From NCBI GenBank assembly GCA_034401795.1, contig CM067365.1:11789797-11853796 (forward strand): 64,000 nt of DNA, in the 5' to 3' direction. Both the position numbers and the translations under genes were made by a program. The notes beneath the pieces are model-generated. The model was not told where the DNA came from. It did not search any database and worked only from the letters and a program-made list of their open reading frames with translations. The stretch's first letter is position 1; each line of letters opens with the position of its first letter. Source of the stretch: Chaetoderma sp. LZ-2023a. Its lineage: Eukaryota > Mollusca > Caudofoveata > Chaetodermatida > Chaetodermatidae. Shown here one piece after another: positions 27,336 through 48,281 of this stretch.

Positions 27336-27399
27336 GTGAGTTACACATGCAAATGAGCACTGAATTCATTGTGTTTAATAGCATCTACATTTTCACTAC

Positions 27400-28865: not shown

Positions 28866-29256
<391 letters not shown>

Positions 29257-29258
29257 AG

Positions 29259-30109: not shown

Positions 30110-30231
30110 AATCAACCTTTCCAGTTTTAGCCATGCCCGGCCCATCTCTAGCTAAGCTCAACCTTCACCTCGATCGTGTTTGGATCGATCGATCCACGAA
30201 TGCATTCACTATCAATTTCTTGAAAAATATA
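30110..30231 (+). mobile_element. MITE family A left half, split by the Polinton
   Basis: CTTTCCAGTTTTAGCCATGC through GGATCGATCGATCC and ACTATCAATTTCTTGAAAA to the Polinton edge at 30231. The matching right half starts at 49975. Confidence 0.88.
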
Positions 30232-30690
30232 AGTAGAGGTGGGGCGAGCTGGTCCCGGATTTTCATACCTTTATCTTTTGTTATGCTAATTAGGTGTCAA
30301 TGACGTCATGATTATTGATTTTGACACGTTTCGTTTCCTTCGCTCTCCACCACGTGTTGAAAAGGTGTGAAAATCCGGGTCTAGCTCTCCGCCATTTTGA
30401 TTGGATGTTAGATGTAGCAGATGTCCATAAGCCCCTCCCCCTCAATAAATCATGTGACTCCTATCATCCAATGAGGTCAGCTCAAGGGTAATTAGTGTAA
30501 TGCTTGACAAGTGTTAATGAGGGTAGTTAAGGACGATTGACAGAGTGCATGTCTGGACTCTTTTCCTGTGAACTCATTCAATCACGAAGTCCTGCCCCCT
30601 CTCGTTAAATCATGGGTATCCTGGCATCTAATGAGGTGAGTTTAAGGGTGATTAGCGTAATGATGCGTGACAAGCATTAATTGATGGGTG
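30232..30690 (+). repeat. Polinton left terminal inverted repeat
   Basis: Matches the reverse complement of the right end over most of its length, including GGGTCTAGCTCTCCGCCAT and ATGTCCATAAGCCCCTCCCC. The left copy has about 45 extra bases (around 30287-30332) containing TGACGTCA. Two subterminal units of about 180 bp follow. Confidence 0.88.
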
Positions 30691-30781
30691 AAATCATATA
30701 AAGGTGGTTTAATAATCTGGGCTGTTAAGCCTGAACATTTTGATTTTTGTTTAAACAGTTTGTTCAACGTTTATTATAATT

Positions 30782-31123
30782 ATGAATATCACATATTTTA
30801 TGGATTGTGACATGCCTATTGTGCTTGGTAACAATATGTACGTACATGTCATGAAATGTAATGACGAATTTGTAGTAGACATACACGAGTTTAGTGTTGG
30901 CAGTGTTTATCCCACCAAGCGAGGTGTGTTTATGTATGTTAATACATTCCGAAAGTTCGCGGTTATGAGTCCTGCATTCGAAGAAACTGTTTGGGGTAGG
31001 TGTTCCAATAGAGTAGAGCAGATTAATTACATATATGAATTGGAACCTCAATTAAAGGTCACTATCAACACTAAATATCCATACGTCAAGCTAACTTTAC
31101 TTTACTTCACCAAGTCAAACTGA
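30782..31123 (+). CDS. PC4-like ssDNA-binding protein (Polinton)
   Basis: A 113-residue intact frame close to the left inverted repeat, starting at ATG. Residues 20-62 (HVMKCNDEFVVDIHEF, then VYPTKRGVFMYVNTFRKF) match the pattern of the PC4/p15 coactivator domain: a beta strand, DIREF-like turn, a basic GxxPTKKGV hairpin, and a hydrophobic helix start. PC4-fold proteins bind single-stranded DNA and act in transcription or replication. A role in element replication or late transcription is inferred from position only. The assignment is by pattern; no search was run. Composition is AT-rich like the PolB region. Confidence 0.6.
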   Translation: MNITYFMDCDMPIVLGNNMYVHVMKCNDEFVVDIHEFSVGSVYPTKRGVFMYVNTFRKFAVMSPAFEETVWGRCSNRVEQINYIYELEPQLKVTINTKYPYVKLTLLYFTKSN

Positions 31124-31232
31124 GATGAAACCATCGTTTAGGAGTGTAACATTCCTAGTGCCTCGTGGAGAATTCTAAAGGAGAACTTGCATCTACGCTC
31201 GTGTAACCATTTTATGCACGAAAACAGCAGTA

Positions 31233-31735
31233 TCAATCAATTTTAATGTGTCTCGGTGGGGGTCATGCAATACTGAGAAAAAACATTTCTACAGCTGATC
31301 GTCAATATCTAGATAAACTCACTATCATTGAAACCATGCTCTCCAAAGATTCCAGAGATCAGTTATTAAGCATTAGATGCACCTTTACTCTCAGGCTGTA
31401 GTGTCAACTTAAAGTTAACGGTTGAGGAAGATGCTTGGTTTGAAATAGTCAGAACCCTACACAGCTGTGTAAACGTTAATTCAAAAGTTAATATAGGATG
31501 GGTTATACATTACTACTATGGTTGAAGAACATAAACTAACTACAGTTTTAGAGGGTGACACTGCAAATACTATGGATTATTTATTCTCGAGAGTCGGCAT
31601 GACTTGATTACTGGGATTAACGTCTAAACAACCAGACCATGTTGGCGATGGAGCCGATTCTGATTATGAAATAGACCAGGCCATTCAGAACCTTATCGAT
31701 CACATATCCCCAGGAGGATCTCGGAGCATTAGATT
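31233..31735 (+). pseudogene. Broken Polinton coding region
   Basis: Coding-like stretches in shifting frames (for example ADRQYLDKLTIIETML near 31290-31345 and LTVEEDAWFEIVRTL near 31418-31460) are separated by stops. Probably one former gene between the PC4-like gene and the next frame. Function unknown. Confidence 0.45.
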
Positions 31736-31960
31736 ATGCTATTAAACATGGATGTAGAAGAAGATATGCCATCGGGATTTGAACCTTTGCCGGATACGCT
31801 GAGTTCTAATGATTTACCTGATTATGAAGGCGCATGTTTTACATCACCCGACTTGCCCAGTGATGTTGTAATTTACGCTCAACCTGCCGCTGCACAGTAT
31901 ACCCCTGACACATTCCATCAAGATATAAATGAACATGAATATCTGAGTTTTGACTCCTAA
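31736..31960 (+). CDS. Small acidic Polinton protein, unknown
   Basis: 74 residues, acidic and proline-rich (EEDMPSGFEPLPDTLSSND), with no recognised domain. It may instead be the last part of the broken gene before it. It starts 27 bases before the next frame's ATG when read from its stop. Confidence 0.45.
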   Translation: MLLNMDVEEDMPSGFEPLPDTLSSNDLPDYEGACFTSPDLPSDVVIYAQPAAAQYTPDTFHQDINEHEYLSFDS

Positions 31961-31986
31961 AACGTTCCCCCAATCTGCCAGAGACA

Positions 31987-32295
31987 ATGCTACGGCTAAT
32001 TCGGGAATGCTATGGTTGTCAACATGACAGACCATCTCAGCATGAACCCCCGTATATGGGTATCTATTATTTCTTAAGACCTATCGACAATGTAGAATTA
32101 CATTACTTAAATGCTTTAGAATGTGTACCTAAGATCGATTTCTTTCTTTCATTGTCTACTGATCCAAATTTATATTGGAATGTATATGAGTTATACAAAG
32201 CCCATAAGACTGAATGGCTAACTGATGTACGATGCACTGTTTATAAGCTGCGCGAATACTATAATTATAACCTAATAGTATTGATAGCCTTATGA
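31987..32295 (+). CDS. Polinton protein with C-x2-C ... H-x-C-like cluster, unknown
   Basis: 102 residues. The N terminus has CYGCQHDRPSQHEPPYM, a compact Cys/His cluster that may bind zinc, followed by a helical stretch with Tyr and Trp. Similar Cys-Gly-Cys...PSQ...H clusters recur, as I recall, in uncharacterised proteins of invertebrate virus-like transposons; not checked. AT-rich like its left neighbours. Confidence 0.5.
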   Translation: MLRLIRECYGCQHDRPSQHEPPYMGIYYFLRPIDNVELHYLNALECVPKIDFFLSLSTDPNLYWNVYELYKAHKTEWLTDVRCTVYKLREYYNYNLIVLIAL

Positions 32296-32299
32296 CCTC

Positions 32300-32598
32300 T
32301 AATTATTGAATTCATTGTTTTTTCTCAATTAAATTTTGCTCGTATTTCTGCTATTAAAATTATATATATATATATATATATATAAGACTCAACCTAAACA
32401 GTATTTCTCTATTCGCTAATGGCCCACCCAGCCCCACCCTGAGCTAGGACTGTTCGATTATGGAAATAAATAATCGATTATGATGTCTAGAAAATAATCA
32501 AATTAATCGAATAGTCGATTATTCAATCCAGGTACTTTGGAAGCAACAACTGCGTAGTGAGGGTGGTGGGTGGGGTGGGGGTGGTGTGGTAAGAGAGT

Positions 32599-32643
<45 letters not shown>

Positions 32644-32664
32644 GCGAGTATAGCTTTCTTAAAA

Positions 32665-32721
<57 letters not shown>

Positions 32722-34430
32722 GATAAATAAATATATAAATAAATAAATAAATAAATTAATTTTTTTTTTTAAATGTCAGGTTTTCTAGAAAAATAACAGA
32801 ATACGCAATTTCGTAAATTGCCTCCAAGTTAGGTTTAGATTATCTCAACTAAGCAGGCCTATGAAAAGACAGCAAGGCGCTCAATAGGACATGCCATATC
32901 AAGCAGTCCTCTGATTGGCTGAACGCGAGCAACAACCCCGCCCAATCAATTTGTAATCCATTGTCAACTCATTCCCATTGGATAATGCTTTTAAGAATTT
33001 GGGGCATATATCCAAATCTTCAAGCCTGTAAAAATGTGACAATTTAATTTTAACATATATTAGCTTTTAATTATCTAGAGCTCGTCCGTAGAGCCTCTCT
33101 ACAATGTTCCCCTACTTTCCAGTATTGGAAAAGCTGAATATTTTGAAAATCCTTTAACTGCAGGTTGTTGCAAGCTTAGGCAACAACAACTTTGGGTCAA
33201 ATTATTGCAAAAAAATCAGCAGAATTTATGAAAATTTGTATCGAAGATTTGTGAATTTACTGCGAAAAATGTAAGCCATATTATTTTAATTTTTATTATG
33301 ATATAGATTTCGGCCATAGTGCCTATCTAGGACGTTTCCCTATTCTCCAGCATTGGAAAAGCCAAATATTTTGAAAATCATTTGACTACAACTGGCAGCA
33401 GTTATCCTCAGGCAGCAACAAACAGCTTTAAGTCAAATTATCCGCAGAATTTGTGAACATTTTCATCGAGATTTTTAAATTTTACTTTGATAAAACAGAA
33501 ATTAATTTTTTGCATTTATTTTGCAAAATGTCCACAAATGCCTCAGCCTATAACCTTCATATTGTTCAATAAAAAGTAGCAATCAAATGTTTCCGATTGC
33601 TGGTGATTAGTTATATGTTAGGAATCCTGGACCACTTCCTTCTGGGGACTACAGCAGAGGTGGCCGCACCTCCCACAGGGTCTTCACAATCCTTGACCAC
33701 TGTCTGCTGAAAGGCCAGCTGGTCTATACCCATAGGGACTACGACAAAGGTGACCTTGCCTCCCACATGAGTTTCAGAAAAATGGATCAATGACGAACTG
33801 GATTATTATAGGGAGTTGTGGACTGTCATGAACCAGAGATCGATTATAATAGGTATGATGACGCCCCTAACGAGTTAGTATACTATAACGTTGCAGCAAG
33901 CAAAGACCTATAAAACTCCCGAGCCACACCTCTCCGGGAGAACCCCCGCATTATCGCTGGCCTCTGGCTGACCTCGTTAAATCACAGGTTCAAATCTCGC
34001 TATGTGTTATTGATGTTGATGAATGATGATTATGTTGATGAATGATTTTGATGAATGATGGTGATGAAAATGTTGATGGATGATGTTAATGTTGATGAAA
34101 ATGTTGATGAATGATGTTAAGGTTGATGAAAATGTTGATGAATGATGATAATGTTGATGAAAATGTTGATGAATGATGTTAAGTTGATGAAAATGTTGAT
34201 GAATGATGTTAATGTTGATGAAAATGTTAATGAATGATGTTAATGTTGATGAAAATGTTGATGAATGATGTTAATGTTGATGAAAATGTTGATGAATGAT
34301 GATGTTAATGTTGATGAAAATGTTGATGAATGATGTTAATGTTGATGAAAATATTCATGAATGATGTTAATGTTGATTGGTGATTCTTGATTGATGATGT
34401 TGATGATTATAGACATAATGCTGGATCACC
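32300..34430. other. Polinton non-coding, repeat-rich segment
   Basis: (TA)n at 32360-32384, a purine (GA)n tract at about 32590-32645, (TAA)n at 32670-32722, a diverged duplicate pair at 33100-33280 and 33305-33490 (each with AATATTTTGAAAATC and GCAACAACA), then a 31-bp minisatellite at about 34010-34390. No recognisable gene, including no integrase on either strand. Confidence 0.7.
34010..34390. repeat. 31-bp minisatellite in the Polinton
   Basis: About 11 units of GTTAATGTTGATGAAAATG plus TTGATGAATGAT, with small length changes. Confidence 0.93.
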
Positions 34431-34511
34431 AACACATGCCACGCCTGTTGTTCCGACTGTCTCCATATCAAACAAACACATTCTCAGATGATCCCGGAAG
34501 GGTTTGTACTG

Positions 34512-35464
34512 TTATATATGTAGGGTTAAACCGAACAAGGTGAACCCCTCGAGAAATATCTGTGTCATATCGAGTCCTGTGTCATCCTCGATGTTGATCT
34601 GCATCCCATCTGGGGCCGGTCTTAGCTGCTTCACTTTACCACCAGCTAGAAGCCGCAACTCTAGCACAAAGGGTATTGTTTGCGGACTTGTGTGAGCCCA
34701 ATATGCTCGAGCAGCTTCACTGAGCCCTTTGTCTTCGAGGAGTGTGACACACCCTCTATCCATAAGACACCATCCTGAATATTGATAGCTTCCTCTGGGT
34801 CATCAAAGGGATGGCAAAGCAGGAGCTTCCTCCAGTGACCCCAATCCTAGGGGCTACTGCAACTAGAGTTGTGCCCTGTCCTATATAGGTCAGAAAATAT
34901 GTCCCCTTGTTATGAAGCTTCTGGACCATGCCATCCATCTTCACAACGGTGGAAAGTGGGGTGACCTCCAGGTCAATAACTGCTGGAGGACTATATAGTG
35001 GCACCCATGCTCGCCACTTACCATCAGGTCCAGCGCGATACCACACCACCTTCTTTTCGAAGACTACCTGCAGGTGTCTTGCCAGGGTCAACACCACACC
35101 ATCATTTGACATCGTTTGGGCATGTTTCACAGTCGGCTCTAAAACTTGAAAGCTGAGGTCAGCGTCAAAATTGTTAACATCCTCAACCTTGTTTTGTGAC
35201 TGTTCTATCAGGGGGTGGAGGATGAACTTCTTCTTCGAGAAGTCATAGCGGAACACTATTTTGTCCCCATCTCTCTCTCGACCCAGACATTCCTTTGAGC
35301 TCTACACTATCGCCACCAATGGGATGGAGGGAGAATGTCTTGGAGTCTGCTCCATTTTGGAGGACGAACGACTTGCCATCGCTTTCCTTAACCTTGACGG
35401 CATCAACGTCATACAAGTCCGCGAGATCAGCTAGACCGGTTGAGTGAGCAAATATGGGCTCCAT
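34512..35464 (-). pseudogene. Minus-strand Polinton gene in three shifted frames
   Basis: Three overlapping frames (35464 or 35515 to 35243, 35256-34756, 34763-34512) follow one another on the minus strand, each ending where the next begins, so one gene of about 310 residues seems broken by two frameshifts. The likely start is ATG at 35464, ten bases after a TATATATA box. Segments such as KSFVLQNGADSKTFSLHPIG and KVVWYRAGPDGKWRAWVPL suggest a beta-rich protein. No domain recognised; a structural or minor capsid role is only a guess from position beside the ATPase-containing block. GC-richer than the left block. Confidence 0.6.
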
Positions 35465-35500
35465 TGTGTATATATAGGGGTTTAAATGGAGTGTATAGCC
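35464..35500. promoter_or_regulatory. Possible divergent promoter of the Polinton middle block
   Basis: TATATATA at 35468-35477 lies between the minus-strand start at 35464 and the plus-strand coding region that follows. It is too close to the minus ATG for a usual animal TATA spacing, so the call is weak. Confidence 0.25.
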
Positions 35501-35580
35501 ATGCCGATTGTCCAATTGCTACTCCAAAATGGGGAGAATGTCATTAGGCCATCTCTAGTTGGTAGACGTGCAGTTCAGTA

Positions 35581-36560
35581 TTGCATAGAATGGGTTCTCT
35601 TCAAGGTAGCTCAGCATTCCACACATATATACATGCCGATGTGTTGCATCCGCCACTGGGAAGTACCTATCACAGGTCACTGACTGAAGTAGGACTAGAC
35701 ATGATAGAATATGTGCCAGGAGCCACCAGCAAACTGTGGAAAGCGATCAGCTCCAACATGTTCACCCACGTAAATCACCTGTTTGACAGCTCCACCATTA
35801 GACTATATGCCAGCATGGATGGGCTATCGGATGCCCAATTAGAGTTTACACTGCTGCTACTTATTGACCTATCCCCATCATGACGATATCATATCAGACA
35901 TTCGCCGAGATGTTGAAAATGGAGATAGAGGAGCCACACCCCTTCCCCCTTGTCAGGCAAATATAGCGGTACAGGAAATGCATTGTCGACAAGAAGGCGA
36001 GCGACTGCAGTGGGTGAGCTGGTATGAACAGAATGCCAGAGAGGCATGGAGACAATGGGACTACAAATCTGTTCAAGAATGGGAGATCCGCATCTGGCAT
36101 GATTTCTTGGATGACGAGTGTGATGAGTCTGTAGAGCATTGGGAAGAGGAGTGGGTGCAGAAGTATAAGTCCAAGAAAGCCCGCAAACGGCAGGCATACT
36201 ATCGGAGTGGCAAGGTGAAGTTCCAGATGTCACGGCTGTGCAAGCTACTGGCCCCTGACATGTCGTTCTGACAGCTGGATGATGTGTGTTTGAGGGAGGT
36301 ATGTCACCGCACCATCAAGCTCACATGCTTCGCCAGGCTCGTCAAGATGAATCCCACAATGACCCATCGACATATCCTACAGGTGATGGCACAAGTTTAA
36401 GACCTTAGGTATATCATCGCTAAATCAGAGTGGCGAAAGTAGCCTCAACTATATCCTGCATTAGCACCGGAGGAGGGTGGTACAGTACAGCAGATTGACA
36501 CCATCAGACAGAATCTTGTTAATGAGACAGAAAAGTACAGCAGAACATGCAGGTGATATA
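35581..36560 (+). pseudogene. Broken plus-strand Polinton gene, unknown
   Basis: A 100-residue frame (35581-35883; includes TYIHADVLHPPLGSTYHRSL) overlaps by 20 bases a 135-residue frame (35864-36271; Trp/Glu/Lys-rich, REAWRQWDYKSVQEWEIRIW). Coding-like sequence continues in the second frame after TGA to about 36395 and in other frames to 36560, with more stops. This looks like one gene of over 300 codons with a frameshift and nonsense mutations. Fold unknown; the second part looks helical. Confidence 0.55.
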
Positions 36561-36586
36561 AAACAGGCTACAACAGTCTAGCATGC

Positions 36587-36997
36587 ATGACCGCAGCTGC
36601 GGGTATGATTGGAGCCAGTGCTGGTGTGGCCGCCATTGCTACCCTCGCTACAGGGATGGGTGCTATCATCGTTATCCCGCTGGGTGGTATGACCCTTGTC
36701 ACTACTGTCCTGGCCACCGGCTTGGCAGTTGGACAGCGTCAGATCACCAGGAAGCTGGAGAAGCATGCCAAGTATGTAACACTAGCACAGAGCAGCCTAC
36801 AGGTTATCGAAGAGTCTGTCAGCAAAGCTCTCGAGGATGGGCAGGTCAGTGATGAAGATTTCCACCATATAATGAAGCTCCAAACCCTGTACCGCACAGC
36901 GAAACCCAAAGTGCGCCTGCAATACCTCAAAGGCTTCAGCGGGCAGGTGGACATGCCAAATAGTATGTTGCACCCGTGGCTGGAACAGCGATTTTAA
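36587..36997 (+). CDS. Glycine-rich membrane protein (Polinton)
   Basis: 136 residues. Residues 1-50 are two hydrophobic, Gly/Ala-rich segments (MIGASAGVAAIATLATGMGA; IPLGGMTLVTTVLATGLAV), likely a membrane hairpin with glycine packing. A charged helical part follows (KLEKHAKYVTLAQ, then VSKALEDGQVSDEDFHHIM), with a helix-loop-helix look. Similar membrane-plus-helix proteins occur, as I recall, in other invertebrate Polinton-like elements, with no proven role. It may be the C-terminal part of the broken gene before it. Intact frame. Confidence 0.55.
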   Translation: MTAAAGMIGASAGVAAIATLATGMGAIIVIPLGGMTLVTTVLATGLAVGQRQITRKLEKHAKYVTLAQSSLQVIEESVSKALEDGQVSDEDFHHIMKLQTLYRTAKPKVRLQYLKGFSGQVDMPNSMLHPWLEQRF

Positions 36998-37011
36998 GAT
37001 GACTACTATAG

Positions 37012-37638
37012 ATGGCCTTCCCAACGAACCTCACGACAATCAACCAGAGCCAACCACCCCTCCTGGGTACACTCTGGACCCGCTCGACAAGTGGTCTCCT
37101 GGATGACATATCGGACCTAACACCTATTTCGATCACAGTCGATGGGCTGTCCTGCATCACATTCTCCACCAATCCACGACCACTGACCAACCTTGCAATC
37201 ACCACCAAGAATGCAAAGAAAGCTCATACCTGGATGGCAGGCCTGAATCTCTCGTTCTGGAACCAACAGCTGAACCTTGCTGTGTGGTGTGCCACAGCAG
37301 GTTGCGGCATTGGCGTGGGTTTGCTGCACTCCTATTCTGGTACCCCCAAAGCAGTGCTCATTGCCAGCTGTTTCACATTTCATGTGTACTACATGGTGAG
37401 GCGAATCCTCCATGAGCTTGGCGCAAGCCTGCCTGATGCAAATGATTTTGATCCACATGCTGCGGGTGTCGGCACTGCGGAAACTGCGAGCTACAGCCTC
37501 TCAGCAGCCAGTAGACTCCAACGAGAGTTCAATGCCCACTCAGAGTATCGTTTCCACAGTGGAGACAACAGCGGTCTAGGCGTTACGTATGGCAACCCGA
37601 GACAAAACTACTCAGGCTTCCCCTATCAAACACCCTGA
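37012..37638 (+). CDS. Candidate Polinton structural protein 1
   Basis: 208 residues, intact, GC-rich. It starts 15 bases after the previous stop. Notable segments are ISITVDGLSCITFSTNPRPL (beta-like), NQQLNLAVWCATAGCGIGVG, and FHVYYMVRRILHELGASLPD. From memory the middle segment resembles a recurrent uncharacterised family of Polinton-like elements in cnidarians and other invertebrates; this was not checked. Position within a virion-type gene block suggests a capsid or virion component. It overlaps the next frame by 50 bases. Confidence 0.5.
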   Translation: MAFPTNLTTINQSQPPLLGTLWTRSTSGLLDDISDLTPISITVDGLSCITFSTNPRPLTNLAITTKNAKKAHTWMAGLNLSFWNQQLNLAVWCATAGCGIGVGLLHSYSGTPKAVLIASCFTFHVYYMVRRILHELGASLPDANDFDPHAAGVGTAETASYSLSAASRLQREFNAHSEYRFHSGDNSGLGVTYGNPRQNYSGFPYQTP

Positions 37639-38260
37639 AAAAGGCCGTCGGAAGACAGCGATGTTCTCCTTTGATCAAGACTCAGAGCCTGGAGCACTGG
37701 TGCAGAATATACATATAATCGGAATTAGGAAGGACCATCCAGAGGCATGGAAATACTTTGTCCCACACACAGCCTCAGGGCTCACACCAGCAGGGATTGT
37801 TCAAATCAACCAATCCTTGGAAGCGTTATGTTATTGTCTCCTGGCAGCCCAGACTAAGCTGTGCCACTCCATAGATGGGGTGAGCGAAATAGATGTGCAG
37901 GCAATGTTCAGCATTCTCGTTGAGGACATGATCATTGTTGCAGATCCAAGTAGCCTCATTGCCAAGTTTCAGCAAGCCTTACAGAAGGCCCGTCGTAAGC
38001 TCGACTTCGCTATATCACCACACCTACGACTTATTCCAAGCAATATGATTGTGAATGTCGAGGATCTGAAGATTAGGGGGTACAATACCATGATAGTCGA
38101 GGCGAATTCCCCAGGTGTGCACTTTGGGTTTAACACTGACATCAAGTCGGCCACGCATGTTGTTCCAGTGACACCTAGGTCCCCGTGGTCTCCTACGACA
38201 GCTGGAACAGCAATTCTGACCACTGGAACAGCAGACGACAAACAGCGACCGCCGTTCTGA
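37589..38260 (+). CDS. Candidate Polinton structural protein 2
   Basis: 223 residues from the first ATG; an internal ATG at 37661 would remove the overlap with the upstream gene and start at MFSFDQDSEPGALVQ. Content is mixed helix and strand (DVQAMFSILVEDMIIVADPS; ISPHLRLIPSNMIVNVEDLK) with a Thr/Pro-rich tail. No family recognised. The coding overlap is compact, virus-like organisation. A virion role is inferred only from neighbours. Confidence 0.5.
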   Translation: MATRDKTTQASPIKHPEKGRRKTAMFSFDQDSEPGALVQNIHIIGIRKDHPEAWKYFVPHTASGLTPAGIVQINQSLEALCYCLLAAQTKLCHSIDGVSEIDVQAMFSILVEDMIIVADPSSLIAKFQQALQKARRKLDFAISPHLRLIPSNMIVNVEDLKIRGYNTMIVEANSPGVHFGFNTDIKSATHVVPVTPRSPWSPTTAGTAILTTGTADDKQRPPF

Positions 38261-38330
38261 CTGCTGACACCCACAACCCCGCCCAGAACTGCTAGCAGGA
38301 CGATAGCCCTACGAGTGGTGTCACGTCTGG

Positions 38331-38770
38331 CTATTGCTGTGCTCGCCACCAGTGTGCTCGGCTGTGGTTCCCACTAGCAACAACTCTTTTGCCTGTTCCA
38401 GAGGAACAATGGGAGTCATGGTTGAGATTGGCTGAACTAGCTTGGCCTGCTCGACAGCCCCCCAAACACACTGGCAGCATACACACCCAAGGACTGTATG
38501 GTTCGGTGATACAGCCTTTTTCCAGCTTGTAGTAGTGCAGAGCCTTATTCAACTCATAGTCGGGGGATGCCATGGATGCCTGCAACTGCTGGAACATGTT
38601 CGACAGATACTCCCAATCCTTGTAGAATCCCTTAGTATGCAGGAGCAGCTCTACGATACTGCCTCCCATAATAAGGTATTCGATGAAGCATATCTGCCCC
38701 TTACCAAATCCTAGGTAGAGTTTCACAGCTGTCAGCTCCTCTGCTACTTCAGCGTAGAAAGTGCACGTTT
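38331..38770 (-). CDS. Minus-strand Polinton frame, unknown
   Basis: An open frame of about 145 codons running from a stop near 38770; no ATG near the start, so the beginning is uncertain. GFGKGQICFIEYLIMGG and YELNKALHYYKLEKG look protein-like. It lies between plus-strand genes and may be an independent gene or a remnant. The C-terminal part (after about 38440) reads less convincingly. Confidence 0.4.
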
Positions 38771-38819
38771 AAACGCATTGTATACTTGTCTTTATAGAGA
38801 TAGATTAAACAATGACGTT

Positions 38820-39167
38820 GGTATAGATTGTAAAGTAAATCTTGGAGAGCCAGGCGAGACTCCAGAAGGTGGAGAAGCTGCTCTAAAGCAAGACCCAGAA
38901 GCTACTGACACAGGCTAAGCCCTGCCCATTCATGTCGCCAGTAACGTGGCCGCGAATGTGGCTGTGGTGAAGATGACAGGTGGTAATGAGGCTATTCCTG
39001 CCGCTGGAGCCACTGTCCTCGCCACTGTAATGAGTACGGTTGTCGACCACTGTCTAGGAATAACACATCCCATCCCAAAGATCGCAATCGGTGTCGCCTC
39101 CTATACTGTTGCTGCCAAGATCATAGGCGAACGCATCCCTCTAATGAAAGCCGCGGTTCTAGGCTAG
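38820..39167 (+). pseudogene. Small Polinton membrane protein with nonsense codon
   Basis: One frame contains ETPEGGEAALKQDPEATDTG, a TAA stop at about 38918, and then, still in frame, a 73-codon open part with two hydrophobic segments (IPAAGATVLATVMSTVV; IAIGVASYTVAAKIIG). There is no ATG at the start of the open part, so a former single gene with a stop is likely. Function unknown. Confidence 0.45.
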
Positions 39168-39235
39168 TGATGAGTGCTATGGCCGAAATCATCGTGGCCT
39201 ATGTCTAGGTTTAAGCTGCCATTAATAGCAATATA

Positions 39236-39709
39236 TTGGACACCACAACAATGTCTCTGTCACTCACAAACCTAGAGAGCAAAGAGCTAGGTGATCTCCC
39301 TCACTTTGGTGAGGCATGCCTTGGTTCAGAAGACACTGTTGCCCCTATCTCCTTCCTAGACTTCGATGAGAAGGGAGAACCTCGAGAGATCCGACGTACC
39401 ATCCCAGCCAGAGATCTCATCGGAAACACTGACACGGTAGGACAATCAGCCATCAAGAAGGCCAAGACTGTATACAAGGGGATGGGCATCAAAGACAGGG
39501 CAGTGATGCGAGGTATGCTCGGAGTCGGCGAGGCTGGTGCCATCAAGGTTATGGCAGAGTCCTATGCACAGGTCCTGGTTAAGGATCTCCTGAAACCACG
39601 GAGCGCATTCCAACATGATGGGGAGAATCTCACGGTAGGCATCATCGGCCTAAGCCATATCATGTTGAATGGCCAAGCGAATGCAATAGCAAAGCTCCAA
39701 CTACCATAG
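39236..39709 (+). CDS. Polinton protein upstream of the ATPase, unknown
   Basis: 157 residues, intact, starting MDTTTMSLSL (a second Met at residue 6). Acidic N-terminal half, then a helical basic half (AIKKAKTVYKGMGIKDRAVM). No domain recognised. It lies just before the ATPase region and is similar in composition to the structural-type genes. Confidence 0.5.
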   Translation: MDTTTMSLSLTNLESKELGDLPHFGEACLGSEDTVAPISFLDFDEKGEPREIRRTIPARDLIGNTDTVGQSAIKKAKTVYKGMGIKDRAVMRGMLGVGEAGAIKVMAESYAQVLVKDLLKPRSAFQHDGENLTVGIIGLSHIMLNGQANAIAKLQLP

Positions 39710-39764
39710 GTGAAGAAGTCGGGATTCATTGGCCTACCATTTAAGCCCACATAATAGCATGGCT

Positions 39765-40600
39765 GCTCGAGCTTGCATCATATGGATACTCGAGGTGTTA
39801 GCCCTCTGCGTTACCTTCTCAGCTGTTGGTGCGATTCTATGCTTGATGCCTCTATCGCATCCTTCATATCCGTCGGCGGTACAACGCTACCCACACAGCA
39901 GGCAAAAAAGCTGGTACAGGAAGTACTGCCATTTAATCTCCCAGATATAGATGAGGCTATGGCTGAAGATCTGTTAACAATCCTTCATGCGCACATGCAA
40001 CATGTCAGTGCCATACAGTAGTAGACCAAATGATGCCGGTCAGGTGGTGCTGATTATTGCCCCATCAGGACATGGGAAAACATTTTGCTGCAGGCCCTGC
40101 TTGCCGAACATCTGCAATCTTGATACATCCTCCTGGTGTCCGACTCTGCCGCTGAGGCAGTCGCCAATAATGATCAGTGGTATAACGGTCCAATCACCAA
40201 GATGCACAACCTGCTGAACCCCTTGTTCTAGTTATCGACGACCCCTCAATGGACCAGAAGACAGTCACATACCTCAGCAACATCACCAGATGCATTCGGC
40301 ACACCAAGATCACTGTCTTCATCCTCTTTCAGAAGTACTATTGCCAGATATCCGGCACAATGCGAGGCTCCTGTACTTTAGCTCGAAGAGTGGTCGTGCC
40401 CTACTTGAGATGATTATATGACCGCCTGACCCTCAAGGAGACCAAGCAAGACTTCATCGCAGGCATGCAGAAGGTCGCAGATCTATACCTCTTTATCGTC
40501 AGCAACAAGGAGACAGGGGAGCTGGCACACTTCAAGCCCTCGCTGGAGAAGGCTCAGAACTTCAGCTACAAGTTGAATTCAGCCAGGAAGCTCACATGTC
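39765..40600 (+). pseudogene. Packaging-type ATPase (FtsK-HerA/A32-like), broken
   Basis: Polinton ATPases are thought to drive DNA into virus-like capsids. Bases 40045-40083 encode VVLIIAPSGHGKT, a Walker A loop. Bases 40226-40245 encode LVIDDPS, a Walker B strand with its acidic pair, and ITVFILFQ near 40308-40330 matches the sensor strand expected next. Upstream (39773-40020) is an 82-residue frame that may be its N terminus. At least two frame changes and stops separate these parts, so no full-length protein can be made. Best-supported morphogenesis gene of the element. Confidence 0.82.
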
Positions 40601-40985
40601 AGTCAGGTCGTCCGCGGTCTCCGCTGCTTCGTCCATAGACTCTGCTGCCTGAGGATCAGATATTTGTTTCTGAAACTCCATCCACTGAGGATCTGATGCC
40701 CCAACTCTTTCTTTCTGAAACTTCTCGTGGAAGGTCCACTTCGCCCATGTCTTCTTAGCATTTCTCTTGGGGTAAGTTTTGATGAGGTAGTCCTGGTAGT
40801 TCTTGGGGAAGTTTAGAAATTCCTTCAGATTACTCTCTATCTGCTCGTGTCCTCTTTCATTGAAGATGTGCTCAATGGCCTCCTCTCAACCTTCGATATG
40901 GCCCTCGGCCAAGCCAGTGGCATGCCCAGCCTCATGGCTTTCAGTCACATGTGTACTGATGTCCTCTCGAAAGTAATCTACTCTG
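40594..40985 (-). pseudogene. Minus-strand Polinton gene with nonsense codon
   Basis: Reading minus from about 40985, a frame with ESHEAGHATGLAEGHIEG meets a TGA at about 40888 and continues in frame for about 97 codons (KEFLNFPKNYQDYLIK, KKTWAKWTFHEKF) to a stop at 40594. Charged, helical; no domain recognised. It converges on the ATPase region. Confidence 0.55.
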
Positions 40986-40999
40986 TATAGAGTAATCGA

Positions 41000-41723
41000 G
41001 TTTACTCTAGATTCACTAGTGAATTTAGGTAGAATATTAGTTATACTAAGAATGTGTGAAATTCTATTAGAAGCTTATAAATCAACTTATTCCCTCAGGC
41101 TTGTGCTTTGATCCTTAGGTAATTAATTTTTGAAAATTGGCGGAAGCTCGTTATCATACTAATCATGCAGCTGTGTCTCAATATTAGGGAAGCTTACTGT
41201 TTATTCCAAAAATCTCATGAACATGTGAACTCATTAACATTGAATAAATGAGCCACGTACACAGAGGCTGAGTCTAAAGATACTGTCAATGTCTCCACAG
41301 TAAAGGCTTAAAAATATTAAAAATCGTTAAATTTTTTGCTAACAATGGACAATCTTATTTTGTGTTTTTTATTTTATCTTGTGTTTTAAAAATGGGTCTA
41401 TCAGAATAGTATATTGATCTTGGCACTTAGCACATGTTCGATGACATGCACAAATCTTGAAGTTTACTGAATCATACGTCAGAACTTCCCACTTGGGTTT
41501 GATTTTTCCTGTAACAGACATTTTTCCCCATATGTAAGAGCCACGAATTGAAGTGACAATCTTTCGAACTCTTGCGTTTAAAAAATCTACACAGTAATAG
41601 CTATAGCAATATGTTGGAAGTTGAAGCTATCGTGTCACAGTGGGAGTTAACGTCTTCGTTACTTACGGAGTTATCCCGGAGTATCCGATAGAGATAGAAG
41701 ACTCGCCAGTAAACGTGGAGGTA

Positions 41724-41760
<37 letters not shown>

Positions 41761-42700
41761 GTATTAGTTTGCTAGTTTTTTTCTAATTTAAGCAAGCCTT
41801 GACACGCGTTGGGCACAATTACTTAAATAAAATAAAAAAACTCAGAATAATAATAAAAACTATCGCTAGACGTGTATCGTCGTTGTTACCTAACGAATAT
41901 GCGTCACTGCGTGTTAATATTGTGTACTGTGTAAGTTAAGGAGCGGTATGCACATAATTACTCGGAGATTAGTTAGAAGTAGCAATAACTTAAGCAAACG
42001 CGCTAGCCAGGGCAGGTAGCAAACAATAACTGTAAGATAGGTGCCATGGAAACCAAGATAAGAATTTGTTCATACTGCATCTGCTCCATAATCGTAAATT
42101 GTATATTTCATTCTATTTCAAATTCACAAATTCACAAATTTAAAATATATATTAATTTATATTGTATGAAGCGTGCCAAGCATTGTTGTAGTACCTGAAT
42201 GTCAAATTGAAAAACCAAAATATCAAAATTAACCTGAAACACTTCTGGTTACGTTCGCACAGCTTTTAACATCTAAACGTGTGTGGTTTGGGGTGGGGGT
42301 GGGTGGGTGGGGGGTGGGGTGGTTAAAACAAGCGCGGAAGGCTTTAGCATGTGTGTGTTTGTGGTCTGCAGAGTTGGCACTGGTGGTCTATTGAGTTAGC
42401 GTCTTATTCAGAATGGGTTTGAAAGATAGAAATAAAACGTTTTGATTAACTATTAATGTATATTAAACTCTAAGCTGAACCTTTAGACATTAATAGCTGA
42501 ACGAACGTAACTCGAAGTTATTATACCATTTAGATCTAGTATAATGTTAGTTTAAGTTGAAAATTTAGACATTTGCTAAAAATTACAGCGCGATCATAGA
42601 AAAGGCTAGTTACCTCCCTTGAAATAATGCATTATATCACACGCTCGGAACAACGTAGTTCCCTCCCTTGACATAATATACTATATTTATTATTATTATT
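41000..42700. other. Polinton spacer between GC-rich and PolB blocks
   Basis: AT-rich. (ATT)n at about 41723-41760. A short frame at 41611-41694 (MLEVEAIVSQWELTSSLL) is followed by GTAATTA and could be an exon, not proven. A G-rich run at 42287-42322 (GGGGTGGGGGTGGGTGGGTG) could form a quadruplex. Confidence 0.55.
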
Positions 42701-42709
42701 TTTAACCAT

Positions 42710-43301
42710 TTGTCGTTTTGTTTTAAATCTTCAGCTGATTCCTGCGAGTGTCGACGGTGCCCGTACACTGTCGACGGTGCCCGTACACGTTCAGCAGACT
42801 GCAACTCGATTGCGGCTAGCTGCAAGAGGCATCTGACATATGATGAAGAACCTGAAGCGTGTACATCAGACGTGCACCATGTCGGTGATGATGTCAATGA
42901 CGACGACCTGATGGATATCGAGACGCTTGCACTCATGGGATATTCCACACACGGATCGATAGAGTACACCCCACCCACCAACAGCCCACCCCCTCCCCGC
43001 ACCCACACCCCCCACCCACTTGGCTATTCTGGAGGATGTGTTAAATGATGTCAGCCGTAGCGTCATCGATCCCTCCAGGTTTAGCCAAGCGGTAACCATC
43101 AAACAAGAGTTTATGGTGGCACCATTAACTCATCTGGAGTACATATTAAACTTTCACGACATCCGCGCAGATGATCTTCCAACCTACGTGCTGAACAACC
43201 CAAATAGACTGCAAGACAAAAGCAGGCGTGAAATGACTGGTCAGGATTACGAGTACAACGATCTTGTAGAAATGTTTAGAAGTCAACCTGAATGTAAGTG
43301 A
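42710..43301 (+). pseudogene. Polinton gene before PolB, frameshifted
   Basis: Frames 42710-43048 and 43020-43301 overlap. The first has DVNDDDLMDIETLALMG and a proline tract; the second has DLPTYVLNNPNRLQDKSR. A 20-bp tandem duplication at 42749-42788 shifts the frame near the start. AG before 42735 and GTAAGTG at 43294 could be splice sites. Function unknown. Confidence 0.45.
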
Positions 43302-43325
43302 ATATAGACTTTTTTATTTTGTTTG

Positions 43326-43575
43326 CGTTGGGTGGGTTGGTGGGTGGGTGGGTGGGGGTGTTGTGTAGGTTCAGGTGTTGAGCGGCCAATGGACTCGGTT
43401 TAGGGTTAGCATTAGAGTTAGGATTAGGGTTAGGTTTAGGGTAGGGTAGGCTGAGGGGTATGGCTAGGTTAGGGTTATGTTAGGGTTAGGGTTGGGGTTA
43501 TGATTAGTATTAGGGTTGGGGTGAGGTGGGTGAGAGGTGTGGGTTTGGAGGGTTTATTGGTTTGATAGGGTTTGG
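43326..43575. repeat. G-rich and telomere-like tract in the Polinton
   Basis: (GGGT)n-type run at 43326-43365, then degenerate TTAGGG/GGGTTA units (for example TTAGGATTAGGGTTAGG) at about 43398-43530. Confidence 0.85.
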
Positions 43576-43900
43576 ATGGTTTGGCGTGTAGGGAGCTGGA
43601 TAGCTGTGAAAAAAAATCTCGTCTGGAAGTATAAAATTTAATCTGTTTTTATCTATGAGGTCAGCGATGGCAGTTGGAGTGACATCAGCTCCATCATCGC
43701 TGCCACCGCTTCCGTCGACGACAATGGCTACATCGATGAGGGCTTCAGGGCTATCGAACTCGGGAGCCTCTTTAACCTAGAGGAGTGACACATCTAAGTC
43801 TGCGCAGGGTCCAGAGACTTCGAAGTTAAATGATAATGCAGGGCAGGATTCATTTGAGGTATTACACGAACATGATTTAAATACTTTAACATCTTTGGAA

Positions 43901-43959
43901 ATCTTGGGAGATATTTATAAAATTTTTATAGCTTTAAAAAACAAAATATCTCCCAAGAT
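43901..43959. repeat. Perfect 16-bp inverted repeat before PolB
   Basis: ATCTTGGGAGATATTT at 43901-43916 is the exact reverse complement of 43944-43959, with a 27-base loop. It could act as a transcription or replication hairpin. Confidence 0.85.
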
Positions 43960-44654
43960 CTTCACACCGGTTCTAATTCTGAAGACGATACATTGCAATG
44001 TAATATAAATATTTGAATGCATGGTCTGATCGATACTGACCTCTTACCCACAGCTCACCAATATTAACCAGTAACCTCCCTCATTACACCCCCAGAGACT
44101 CAACCCCTAAATTCCCTGCCAACATCTAAATGCACAAATGCTACTGTACAATTTTGGAGACTGTTTGAGTTCCCAAGCTCTAACCATGTTAATGCTACCT
44201 ATTCCCAGCCCACCCTAGCTATCTCAAACACACCCACCCCACCAAGACTAACCCACCCTCAGCCGCAACCAACCCCCACCCCACCTCTAACAACTCTGTC
44301 AGCCCACTCTATACACACGTTAAGAAAACTATTAAAAATAATTACAACAATTGCAAAAATAAATCGACTCTAGCCCGCAGTGTTAATTTATTTGAAATTA
44401 ATGATATGGATATGGAAACTAATATGATCGGGGGAGGGTTTAACAATGTAGTGGATGGGGATTCTTCGGGAGATGGGGTGACAGACATTCAGATGCCGTT
44501 GTAACCATTATGCATAGACTCGGCATGCCTGACATCGCTGGTATGTACAATATAACTCTCACTTGCACCTTTCAGTCCAACGTTTTAATATTGCTCTGTC
44601 AACTTTAATCACGACGCCATTATAACCGATAATTTGGTTGAAGTTTCATAGCGC

Positions 44655-47600
44655 GTGTACTCTACGTTCGAAAGAATATTAGAGAGATTTTACTCTGGCA
44701 TGAATGCATCACCTCTAGATTACAGCAGGGTCACAATAAATCACTCCACACTAAACACCCCAATCCATGTGGACTTTGCCCAAGTCCGAGATCTGACAGC
44801 TACAGAAATAATGAATGCACTTTCTGTAGTAAGACAATCTCAAAGAGATGTATGTCTCGCTGGTGACATTTCTATGGAGATTTTTCATGTAGAAATGCCT
44901 AGAGGATCAGAGTGGAATAATAAGCTTGCCAAATTATATCTCGATGATGAAGTCGAAGCCACGTTGAAAAAAAGCTGTATCACTGTTAGGAATCTAGATA
45001 ATACGTGTATGGCCCGATGTTTAGTGATTGTGCTATGTTATCTAGATTCGTCAGCGTCGAAGGCTGAGCATAAGCAGATTAGAAAACACCCTGCACATCT
45101 AGTTAGGTGGGGGTTGGGTCTTAGGTAATAATCAGCAGCAATGGATGAAAGCTCGAGAACTGCACACTCAGGCAGGTATGTCTACTAACATAGCTTGTGG
45201 GCCCGATACTTGGAATGCATTCCAAGACATTTTGGCACTGCTTGGTATTTCTCTATGAGTGTAGAGGAAGGCAGAGAATAAACACCGCATATACAAGGAT
45301 GCAGATAATTGCATTCAAATTCTGCCCTTTATTTGTATAATAATAATTAGCAGCATTAAGGCCTTGAAAGGTTGCAGAAATTACTGCAATGATTGCCCCA
45401 TAGCTTACATGAACCACGATCAACACTCTTGCATAAAACGCTGTCATTTATGTCAAGCGGCTCCACCCTGCAAGCAGATCGCTAATCGCTATTGCGAAGC
45501 TTGTAGCAGATGGTTTAAGAGCAACGGTTGCTATAACAATCATGTTAACTCTGGGATGTGCACCACATCTTGCGGGGACTGTGGCAAACTTCTAGATGTT
45601 GATTCTCGTTCTAAACATCATTGCGGGCAGGGGAAATGTCCTAGTTGCAAGACTGAATTTACGGGACCGCGTTTGTTATATGAAGCATTATAACGAAGAA
45701 CATATGAGCTTTTCCGCGAAACATAAATAAGGACTTATCGTCCATCCCTCAACATTTCATCTTTTATGATTTTGAAATGAATCAAATGACAAAGCATCAT
45801 GAGATTATTTATGTTGTTACTCAGATAGCTTTCTCCATATGAATTAGCAAACCTTGTGACAAGCATTGTGTGGAATGCGATGAACGTTGAAGACAGGTTA
45901 TCTTCGAAGGTGCTAATGCTCTAACTGCTTTCATGCAATGGTTGTTAGTTACGAAATCTGAATGGTAAGCATAAGTCTAATGTTCTAAAGTTTTGTGACT
46001 ACATCGCTATAGCTCATAACAGTCGTGGTTTTGACTTGCATTTAGTAATGGAGATGCTCTTTAGAAACACAGAGCGTAAACCGTCCAACGTAATAATGAA
46101 TGGTAATAACGTGGTGTATTTAAATGTTGGCGACATATATTTTAAGAACAGGCTAGCATTTCTTCCATTTCAACTACATCAACTATCAGCAATATTCAGT
46201 CTACCTAGCAACACAAGGATTTTTTCCATATCTCCTAGACAGTAACGTATACTTTGATTACATGTGGTGGAGTGTACCCAGCGATTGATGCTTAGGGTGC
46301 AGACAGTATGTCGGTGTCAGCACATGAGGGATTTGACACGTGTTATGATGCTGTGAAAGATGGAGTTTTCAATTTCTGGGATGCCATGAGACTTTACTGC
46401 AGGTCTGACATAGATATTCTACGGATGGTTTGCGGTAAATTTCATGATGTGTTCATCCGTGAAACTGGGATACTGCCTTTTGTGTCATCTATGACTTCAG
46501 CGTCATTATGTAATAAGGTATTTAGGGCTAACTAAATGATCATAAGCTAGTAGCTCCACCTGTTATGGGGTACGTTAACCTATGTAACTAGAAACGTTAC
46601 TCCATAGAAGCATGTAAGTGGCTAGATTACCTGGCTCATTCTAAGAACGTCTTCATTAAACACGCTCTAACGGGTGGCGAACACAAAGTGTTTACCTGAT
46701 CGCTGGATGGTTATTGCCCAGACATGGACGAGTACTTTGAGTATTATGGCTGCTACGTACATACGCATCCGAAATTGCTGATATAACAATGTATCAGAAG
46801 ACGCTTTCTAAATCTAGTGAGTTTAGACGTGTGTGTTTGTGTTTGAAGGTAGTTGAAATGTGGGGTTGAGATCTTAAGGCCCATAGGCTTAAGGACCCTA
46901 GCATTAATGCTTTTCTGAATGCTAGAACATATCATGAACTGCTTGTCATGCACGATGCCCTCTATGGTGGCCGCACCAGTGCCATACATTTCCATTAACA
47001 GGCCACAGCATATGTGTATATAGTGTACTTGGATATCACTTCACTATATCCTTATGTTTGTAAGACCCACGAGTACCCTCTAGGTGAACCGGAAGTAATC
47101 ATTACAGATTTTAAGCCGGTAGAGGAGTTAGTGCTTACTTCGGTCTGATAAAATGTGTCTGTTTGCCTCCTAAAGATTTATTCTTTCCTGTCTTCCCCTA
47201 CAAATGTAACAAACATTTTTTCTTTCCATTGTGCACCAAATGGGCTTATGATTTGCAGAGTACTGAATGTACTCACAGTGATAGTGAGCATGCTTTACAT
47301 GGTGTATGGACGTCTGTGGAGTTGATGGAGGTGGTACATAGTGGGTACTGTATTTAGAGTTTATCAAGATATGGCACTATGAAGAGCATACTGATACACT
47401 TTTCAATGGATGCATCGATAACTTTTTGAAAATTAAGCAAGAAGCATCATGGTATCCCAAAGATGTGGTCACCGATTCGCAGAAAGACATGTATGTTCTG
47501 GAATATTTTGAACATGAGGGGAGTAAATTATATAAATCTATGATAATTCAAAATAAGGGCCTTAGAACCATGACAAAACAGGTACTGAATTCTTTGTGGG

Positions 47601-48281
47601 GTTATCCTTTGCTTAACCCCTACCAAAGCATGAATATGTCAATTCAGATAGCACCATGTTGAAGTTGGTTATGGATAGAATGATTTCTGTCAATAGCTAT
47701 CTATGTATGTAACAACAGCACTCTCTTAATGCACTATCGTGAGTTTAACCAATTCGTATCCTCAGCTAGTCATACCAATGTTGTGATCGCTGCGTTTGTC
47801 ATGAGTTACACCAGGGTTCATTGATACAAAGTATAATAGCTGTAGGCTCGAGTTGTATCTATCATGATACAGATTCTATCATGTATGTTAAGAAATGTGA
47901 TAAACCTCACCTAATGCCCGTTTTCCACGACATACTCCTGCAGTGAAATAACTGAGATTGTTAGTACTGGCCAGAAGAGTTATGCATACATACAGTTAGA
48001 TGAACAGACAAGGGATATCAAGAATGTCTGCAAGTTTAAGGGCTTATCTTTAAATTACAGGAGTAAGGGATTGGGGTTTGAGACTCTGTTAGCCATCTTC
48101 AAAGATAATAATCTCGAAACATTTGCTCAGTATCCTAATACTATCATTAGAAGTAAAGATCATAGACTTTTGATGCTGAGGATGCTGAGAAACGTTTCGG
48201 ATTTACTTACAAAAAAAGGATAATTTTTAATAACTATTATACTAAACCATATGGCTTTCAGGATATCCCTAGGATCTAATT
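44655..48281 (+). pseudogene. pPolB: Protein-primed family B DNA polymerase (Polinton PolB), broken
   Basis: PolB copies the element from protein-primed ends. Four parts remain in order. The N-terminal region (44655-45128, 157 codons; TLNTPIHVDFAQ, CITVRNLDNTCMARCL) is typical of Polinton PolB. A Cys/His-rich region (45364-45693) has repeated C-x2-C pairs. The 3'-5' exonuclease region has FYDFEMNQ near 45762, HNSRGFDLHLVMEML near 46017 and YCRSDIDILR near 46399. The polymerase region has LDITSLYPYV at about 47028, NSLWGYP at about 47588 and YHDTDSI at about 47860. Many stops and shifts separate them; none gives a complete enzyme. Confidence 0.9.

What the first reader, a model, noticed from the sequence alone, without database searches (positions are those of the whole stretch)
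34430..41000. GC-richer morphogenesis block between two AT-rich replication blocks in the Polinton
The left genes (30.8-32.3 kb) and PolB (44.6-48.3 kb) are plainly AT-rich. The middle genes, including the ATPase, are much richer in G and C, and repeat-filled spacers separate the blocks (32.3-34.4 and 41.0-42.7 kb). The element may be a recombinant of two lineages. The block has about nine genes on both strands, most of unknown family, and is the strongest candidate here for an undescribed virion-type module.
Basis: partly seen in the sequence, partly recalled or inferred. Interest (0 to 1): 0.78.

Follow-up and report, generated by a model that had tools for sequence, protein, structure and literature searches.

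The report
Half a Polinton inside another Polinton
The GC-rich block is the broken-off left half of one virus-like jumping element lying inside a different, AT-rich one; the mixture looks like an accident of genome decay, but the GC-rich family keeps a set of conserved genes of unknown kind where capsid genes would be expected.

Summary
The GC contrast is real: 34,430-40,980 is 49.7% GC against 36-39% in the rest of the element. The block is not a module of that element. The host genome (2.44 Gb) holds at least 25 other loci with it. In 10 of 10 fetched loci the AT-rich genes are absent and the sequence continues into a GC-rich right half; copies tested there encode an integrase and PolB. One copy with both ends is 15.8 kb, with inverted terminal repeats and a 6-bp target duplication. 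The AT-rich element is a separate Polinton family whose own protease and hexon-like genes are missing from the window. The window is therefore a composite: AT-rich Polinton, an unrelated 1.16-kb repeat, the left half of a GC-rich Polinton, then AT-rich Polinton again.

The GC-rich family is the interesting part. It has a packaging-type ATPase and at least eight other genes under purifying selection (dN/dS 0.06-0.35), yet no hexon, penton or protease was recognised by the sequence methods used. Structure prediction failed, so a new virion module is possible but not shown.

The parts
30232..49974 (.). AT-rich Polinton (outer element), decayed, its capsid region missing and foreign DNA in its place; target duplication AATATA / ACTATA (5 of 6) at 30226-30231 and 49975-49980
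   Evidence: Inverted terminal repeats of roughly 400-450 bp, 81% identical over the 357-column main part (exact ends and duplication read by eye from that alignment); repeat family in own genome
30782..32295 (+). Left genes of the AT-rich Polinton (ORFs 30782-31123, weakly PC4-like; 31736-31960; 31987-32295)
   Evidence: ORFs; PC4 E 2.8e-4, below Pfam's cut-off; region shared with AT-rich copy L031
32445..33604 (.). Unrelated dispersed repeat of about 1.16 kb in the AT-rich element
   Evidence: 40 loci scored, the window included, out of 2012 candidates; alignment with L033 covers 32444-33609; AT-rich homology stops at 32439 in L031 and at about 32445
33606..40980 (+). Left half of a GC-rich Polinton-like element, from its left terminal repeat to a break inside gene g9
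   Evidence: 25 other loci (grouped by hand, capped); left end shared with 6 of 10 fetched loci and inverted at the right end of 2; homology ends at 40980 in 8 of 10 fetched loci, and earlier, near 39950, in the other 2
34013..34397 (.). 31-bp minisatellite of the GC-rich family (more than 5 kb long in copy L017)
34512..35464 (-). g1: unknown protein, about 305 aa in other copies; in three frames here
   Evidence: alignment A4; dN/dS 0.08-0.13 against the distant subfamily
35486..36400 (+). g2: unknown protein, about 300 aa in copy L021; broken here
   Evidence: dN/dS 0.30-0.35
36557..36997 (+). g3: small protein with a long hydrophobic stretch
   Evidence: weak RTX N-terminal hit E 1.1e-3, below cut-off; selection not tested
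37012..38260 (+). g4: unknown protein of about 400 aa or more; split over two frames here, one 350-aa ORF in copy L011
   Evidence: dN/dS 0.06-0.22
38331..38768 (-). g5: unknown protein, 157-172 aa ORFs in other copies; shorter here
   Evidence: dN/dS 0.16-0.23
38973..39167 (+). g6: small hydrophobic protein
   Evidence: dN/dS 0.20
39251..39709 (+). g7: unknown protein, 152 aa here
   Evidence: dN/dS 0.25-0.26
39759..40620 (+). g8: packaging-type ATPase with an upstream ORF (same gene or not unknown), broken here
   Evidence: tblastn of the family's ATPase hits 39978-40620 in several frames; family protein: PHROG 2666 'terminase large subunit' E 1.5e-7, AAA_33 E 1.4e-3; dN/dS 0.20
40592..40980 (-). 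g9: unknown protein, cut off by the junction (131-283 aa ORFs in other copies)
   Evidence: dN/dS 0.23-0.35
40981..40990 (.). Junction: GC-rich homology ends at 40980; then CTC, then the word TGTATAG (40984-40990), present in both families there, from which AT-rich homology runs on
   Evidence: Window compared with L030 (AT-rich) and L018, L016 (GC-rich, where 11 other bases precede the word)
44652..48223 (+). Broken PolB of the AT-rich Polinton, with a zinc-finger-like stretch
   Evidence: DNA_pol_B_2 in two separate pieces, E 0.019 and 0.020, below cut-off; no family in pieces 47342-47659 and 47915-48220; zinc fingers; family copies

Best explanation
The window holds a composite of dead elements. 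An AT-rich Polinton was there first. A 1.16-kb dispersed repeat and a GC-rich Polinton-like element came to lie in its middle. A deletion, perhaps guided by a shared 7-bp word, then removed the right half of the GC-rich element together with the middle of the AT-rich one, including its protease and hexon-like genes, and fused g9 of the GC-rich element to the AT-rich element at 40,981-40,990. The GC contrast is the difference between two families. The GC-rich family once moved on its own: a viral-type PolB to copy its DNA, an rve integrase to insert it with a 6-bp duplication, a packaging-type ATPase, and at least eight further genes kept by selection, which I infer include its virion genes. 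Shown: two separate families, the boundaries, the gene content, selection between subfamilies. Inferred: order of events, deletion mechanism, virion function.
For: Block without AT-rich genes in 10 of 10 fetched loci. All 10 share at least part of a further right half, GC-rich in the two read out, with rve integrase E 1.5e-4 in L020 and 7.6e-4 in L014, DNA_pol_B_2 E 6.1e-5 in L014 and 5.6e-4 in L010. Terminal repeat of the GC-rich family at 33,606, inside the outer terminal repeats. One copy with both ends, 15.8 kb, duplication CGGCCC. AT-rich pieces without the block, 3 of 3; L031 spans the place with its own protease (Peptidase_C5 E 0.0058) and a hexon-like ORF, which tblastn does not find in the window. 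Third unrelated repeat between the two. Junction. No second composite among the listed loci. Mismatch rates within the GC-rich family nearly flat over codon positions (0.087, 0.095, 0.106; intergenic 0.092), as expected of mostly dead copies.
Against: No complete GC-rich element inside an AT-rich one was seen, so the order of events is inferred. The target duplication of this GC-rich copy cannot be checked because its right end is gone. The microhomology is imperfect: GC-rich homology ends 3 bases before the shared word. Locus lists are lower bounds (27 of 10,772 and 23 of 3,454 candidates scored), so another composite could exist. An assembly error at the junctions is not excluded.
Confidence: 0.91

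Rival explanations
1. A true recombinant virus: the AT-rich lineage exchanged its virion module for that of the GC-rich lineage and the chimera then inserted here as a unit.
For: The foreign piece lies where the AT-rich family's own protease and hexon-like genes should be; outer terminal repeats and a 5-of-6 duplication surround the whole; virion genes of other kinds in polinton-like animal viruses are reported (PMC11071296, section 16 read).
Against: The block begins with the GC-rich element's own terminal repeat, follows an unrelated repeat, ends inside a gene and is half an element; no second composite found among what was examined.
Confidence: 0.05
2. Assembly chimera: the two families were wrongly joined at short shared sequence.
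For: A 7-bp word is shared at one junction; both families are repeats.
Against: Both ends of the AT-rich element with a near-matching duplication are present around the whole; 7 bp is short for a misassembly of long reads (assembly method not known).
Confidence: 0.04
3. One Polinton with uneven composition, as first described.
For: The GC change is sharp and lies between outer terminal repeats.
Against: The parts are independent repeat families.
Confidence: 0.005

Closest known systems
Polinton (Maverick) elements
   Same: GC-rich family: viral-type PolB, rve integrase, packaging-type ATPase, inverted terminal repeats, 6-bp target duplication, 15.8 kb.
   Different: No hexon, penton or adenovirus-type protease recognised. 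PMC4028283 (passages read) reports ATPase and protease identifiable in 83% and 74% of Polintons, and nine elements without a capsid protein that also lacked ATPase and protease; this family keeps the ATPase.
Adintoviruses
   Same: The AT-rich family resembles them: adenovirus-type protease and an ORF with a hexon-like motif (the motif is recalled, not a database hit).
   Different: PMC11071296 section 16 (read) defines them by a PolB with an OTU-like domain and a hexon recognisable by BLASTp. No relative of the AT-rich hexon-like ORFs was found in the GC-rich family; the OTU domain was not tested.
Meldviruses with virion genes of another kind (e.g. Meld23486)
   Same: Adintovirus-like PolB and integrase combined with virion genes of another kind (PMC11071296, section 16 and a passage of the Figure 7 legend).
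   Different: Whether the GC-rich family's unknown genes resemble those virion proteins could not be tested: no sequences or usable models at hand.

Membership tests
Polinton/Maverick (GC-rich family) | Family B DNA polymerase of the viral (protein-primed) type | tested here: met
   DNA_pol_B_2 E 6.1e-5 (L014) and 5.6e-4 (L010), 22.5 and 19.4 bits against a cut-off of 25.8; none in pieces of L026 and L028; weak in L020 (E 0.025 and 0.21); PHROG DNA polymerase E 6.9e-5. Terminal-protein domain not tested
Polinton/Maverick (GC-rich family) | Retrovirus-like (rve) integrase | tested here: met
   rve E 1.5e-4 (L020) and 7.6e-4 (L014), below Pfam's cut-off; dN/dS 0.14-0.16
Polinton/Maverick (GC-rich family) | Inverted terminal repeats and 6-bp target duplication | tested here: met
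   Inverted repeat found at the right end in 2 of 10 fetched loci; duplication CGGCCC in the one locus where both ends were in hand (read by eye)
Polinton/Maverick (GC-rich family) | Genome-packaging ATPase | tested here: met
   PHROG 2666 E 1.5e-7; no convincing match among solved structures; Walker motifs recognised from recall
Polinton/Maverick (GC-rich family) | Double jelly-roll major capsid protein and penton (present in many, not all, Polintons) | tested here: inconclusive
   No convincing hit in Pfam, PHROGs or PDB sequences; hhalign of 14 gene sets against 6 AT-rich proteins at most 1.7%; two single-sequence structure predictions failed, mean pLDDT 31.1 and 32.4
Polinton/Maverick (GC-rich family) | Adenovirus-type cysteine protease (common, not universal) | tested here: not met
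   Motif G[TSNAC]HW: none in an open frame of 20 GC-rich pieces (one match, in L012, runs across stops), found in the AT-rich copy L031; no Pfam hit. The copies are decayed and the motif narrow, so a divergent protease is possible
Adintovirus (GC-rich family) | Hexon recognisable by BLASTp | tested here: inconclusive
   tblastn of AT-rich hexon-like ORFs against 20 GC-rich pieces: no hit at E 0.01; adintovirus reference sequences themselves were not available
Adintovirus (GC-rich family) | OTU-like domain at the PolB N terminus; integrase with C-terminal chromodomain | not tested
   No model or profile used
Polinton/Maverick (AT-rich family) | PolB, protease, terminal repeats, 6-bp duplication | tested here: met
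   DNA_pol_B_2 in two pieces E about 0.02, Peptidase_C5 E 0.0058, all below cut-off; terminal repeats and a duplication matching at 5 of 6. Integrase and ATPase of this family: the GC-rich family's own find none in 3 AT-rich pieces; not sought otherwise

The most novel reading that the evidence does not exclude
The GC-rich family is a polinton-like animal virus with an undescribed virion module: it keeps PolB, integrase and packaging ATPase, but its capsid, vertex and maturation proteins (among g1-g7, g9, g10) are unrelated in sequence, and perhaps in fold, to hexon, penton and adenain.
Probability: 0.25. Interest if true: 0.75.

Novelty: new variant of a known kind. Interest (0 to 1): 0.45.

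Why it matters
The composite is ordinary, and warns that a GC step inside a Polinton can mark a second Polinton, so one window must not be read as one virus. The GC-rich family matters more. Krupovic and co-workers found nine elements without a capsid protein that also lacked ATPase and protease (PMC4028283, passages read). A family that keeps the ATPase and at least eight other conserved genes, with no recognisable capsid protein, has either a strongly diverged capsid or a replaced one, and folding its proteins with alignments of existing copies could decide.

Tried and rejected
Structure prediction on two window ORFs (g4 second half, g1 middle) without an alignment gave mean pLDDT 31.1 and 32.4: unusable, so no fold search was made.

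Relatives in IMG/VR: seven scans (ATPase; PolB three times; g4; g10; integrase) found none. I take this collection to be poor in animal viruses, so it says little.

PDB sequence searches: only chance-like hits; the PolB profile hit designed repeat proteins. Neither family's PolB was confirmed by a solved structure.

Recombination into a viable chimera was considered and set aside because of the inner terminal repeat and the third repeat. A crude helix/strand propensity count (recalled Chou-Fasman values) did not separate capsid candidates: g10 0.40 and g1 0.38 strand-leaning, g3 and g5 also 0.40, against 0.54 for the AT-rich hexon-like piece. By eye g10 (347 aa, L032) is my first candidate for a capsid protein; that is a guess.

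Not done: trees of ATPase and PolB, identification of the host species, selection on g3, a complete copy count. Only 10 of 25 other GC-rich loci and 3 of 22 other AT-rich PolB loci were fetched, and of the 3 only L031 spans from the left genes to the right part.

Literature: six library searches. PMC4028283 and PMC11071308 were seen in passages, PMC11071296 in outline with abstract, passages and section 16; the adintovirus paper PMC8502044 is not held. No report of this family was noticed in those listings; that is not proof of absence.
Full report
OBSERVATION. Windowed GC rises sharply at 34.4 kb and falls at 41.0 kb. The best-fitting segment is 34,420-40,940, 49.8% GC against 38.5% around it; no other 6.55-kb stretch of the window passes 44.5% (887 overlapping stretches); third-position GC differs too. 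The block holds about nine genes on both strands, several of them broken. None of the block ORFs tried reaches a Pfam cut-off.

THE BLOCK IS A SEPARATE FAMILY. A search of the host's own genome (2.44 Gb, 2753 contigs, species not named) with the block gave 101 matches, which I grouped by hand into 26 loci, the window included. Only 27 of 10,772 candidates were scored, so this is a lower bound; two pairs of loci lie within 100 kb of each other and may be duplicates of one insertion. I fetched 10 of the 25 other loci, about 19.5 kb each. All 10 match the window between about 33.6 and at most 40.98 kb, with gaps; 8 of 10 stop at 40,980 and 2 near 39,950. None matches the window's left genes or PolB region; the remaining matches are short repeats at or beyond the ends of the AT-rich element or to the dispersed repeat. 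All 10 share at least part of a further right half, GC-rich in the two read out (0.41-0.54 per 500 bp in L022, mostly near 0.50). Copies carry there an rve integrase on the plus strand (E 1.5e-4 in L020; 7.6e-4 in L014) and a DNA_pol_B_2 polymerase on the minus strand (E 6.1e-5 in L014, 5.6e-4 in L010), with an Endonuclease_7-like stretch (E 1.6e-4 in L028). These scores lie below Pfam's cut-offs, and some other PolB pieces (L026, L028) gave no polymerase hit, as one may expect of decayed copies.

ENDS. The window sequence from 33,605 matches the left end of other loci (4 of 10 well, 2 more weakly) and recurs inverted at the right end of two (L018, L010). In the locus on C13, where both ends were in hand, the element is 15.8 kb long and flanked by CGGCCC on both sides (read by eye). 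The window copy has the left end and lacks the right half.

THE AT-RICH ELEMENT. The outer terminal repeats are roughly 400-450 bp long (30,232 and 49,974 as ends; 81% identical over the main part), with a 6-bp duplication matching at 5 of 6 positions (read by eye). Its PolB half is a family of at least 23 loci; its left genes give many more candidates (40 of 5,090 scored). Three AT-rich pieces of 10 kb were fetched: none contains the GC-rich block. In L031 the left genes (window up to 32,439) are followed by 3.4 kb that the window lacks, then by sequence matching window 41,025 onwards. That 3.4 kb encodes an adenovirus-type protease (Peptidase_C5 E 0.0058, below cut-off) and an ORF whose motif I recognise from recall as polinton hexon, with a relative in L029 (60% over 113 aa). 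tblastn finds neither in the window. In L030 the sequence left of the 40,984 equivalent is other AT-rich sequence with ORFs, not the block. L029 and L030 do not reach matched left genes. So the AT-rich family looks like an ordinary Polinton, and the window copy has lost its capsid region.

JUNCTIONS. Left: AT-rich homology ends at about 32,445. A different dispersed repeat fills 32,445-33,604 (40 loci scored of 2,012 candidates; L033), and the GC-rich terminal repeat follows at once. Right: GC-rich homology ends at 40,980 inside gene g9 (same point in 7 of 7 pieces shown). After CTC comes TGTATAG (40,984-40,990), which both families have there, and from it AT-rich homology runs on. In the GC-rich copies 11 other bases precede that word, so the microhomology is suggestive, not clean. 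Among the listed loci no GC-rich and AT-rich PolB pair on one contig lies closer than 2.5 Mb (25 against 22). The simplest history is arrival of the small repeat and of a GC-rich element in the middle of the AT-rich one, followed by a deletion. The order is inferred.

WHAT THE GC-RICH FAMILY ENCODES. Besides ATPase, integrase and PolB, I see g1 (about 305 aa, minus strand), g2 (about 300 aa), g3 (hydrophobic), g4 (about 400 aa or more), g5 (minus strand), g6 (hydrophobic), g7, g9 (minus strand) and g10 (347 aa in L032), plus smaller ORFs. The ATPase matches PHROG 2666 (terminase large subunit) at E 1.5e-7. A second, distant subfamily lies next to one copy on C9 (L016, L032; about 68-84% nucleotide identity). 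Against it, dN/dS is 0.08-0.13 for g1 and 0.30-0.35 for g2, 0.06-0.22 for g4, 0.16-0.23 for g5, 0.20 for g6, 0.25-0.26 for g7, 0.23-0.35 for g9, 0.11-0.21 for g10, 0.20 for the ATPase and 0.14-0.16 for the integrase. Within the main family mismatches are nearly even over codon positions (where the excess at third positions, though small, is significant and owes much to the distant copy in L016); pairwise dN/dS is 0.36-1.09 in 16 comparisons, mostly below 1, so part of that divergence also arose under selection before the copies died. The unknown genes are therefore real and were kept by selection while the element was replicating. Caveats: one distant copy only, synonymous sites partly saturated, aligned stretches with under 40% local identity dropped before counting, g3 not tested.

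NO RECOGNISABLE CAPSID GENES. Pfam, PHROGs and PDB sequences give nothing convincing for the unknown genes. Profile comparison of 14 GC-rich gene sets with 6 AT-rich proteins gave at most 1.7% probability (the AT-rich sets were single sequences, so sensitivity is low). A protease motif scan found no match in an open frame of the 20 GC-rich pieces. Krupovic et al. (PMC4028283, passages read) report that nine Polintons without a capsid protein also lacked ATPase and protease. A family that keeps the ATPase under selection is therefore, I infer, more likely to have a capsid protein that these methods miss than to be capsid-free. Buck et al. (PMC11071296, section 16 read) report polinton-like genomes with virion genes of other kinds, so a replaced module would not be without precedent.

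VERDICT. GC contrast: real. One recombinant element: not supported.

Noticed in passing
L016 and L032 (G000:C9:129294600-129311999): A second GC-rich element of a distant subfamily (about 68-84% identical) lies close beside a main-family copy; several of its genes have long open frames.
   Followed up: partly
L017 (G000:C1:45568000-45577999): The 31-bp minisatellite near the GC-rich element's left end has grown to more than 5 kb in this copy (about 0.4 kb in the window).
   Followed up: no
window 32445-33604: High-copy dispersed repeat of about 1.16 kb with two internal diverged copies of a unit, spaced 228 bp; kind not determined.
   Followed up: partly
L026, about 6.8-9.6 kb of the reverse complement: Two long ORFs (664 and 757 aa) that look like the reverse transcriptase and tyrosine recombinase of a DIRS-like retrotransposon (from recall, not searched).
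   Followed up: no
L030:6329-7285 (minus): A 319-aa ORF that looks like a Tc1/mariner transposase (from recall) inside an AT-rich Polinton copy.
   Followed up: no
window 30782-31123: AT-rich Polinton's left ORF is weakly similar to the single-strand DNA-binding coactivator PC4 (E 2.8e-4, below cut-off).
   Followed up: no
window 49975-50234 and 53309-53576: Diverged direct copies (about 84%) of a sequence just outside the AT-rich element's right end, 3.3 kb apart.
   Followed up: no
window 27000-29300: Long CT-rich array with extreme GC skew (to -0.89), GC-richer than the block at the 1-kb scale.
   Followed up: no
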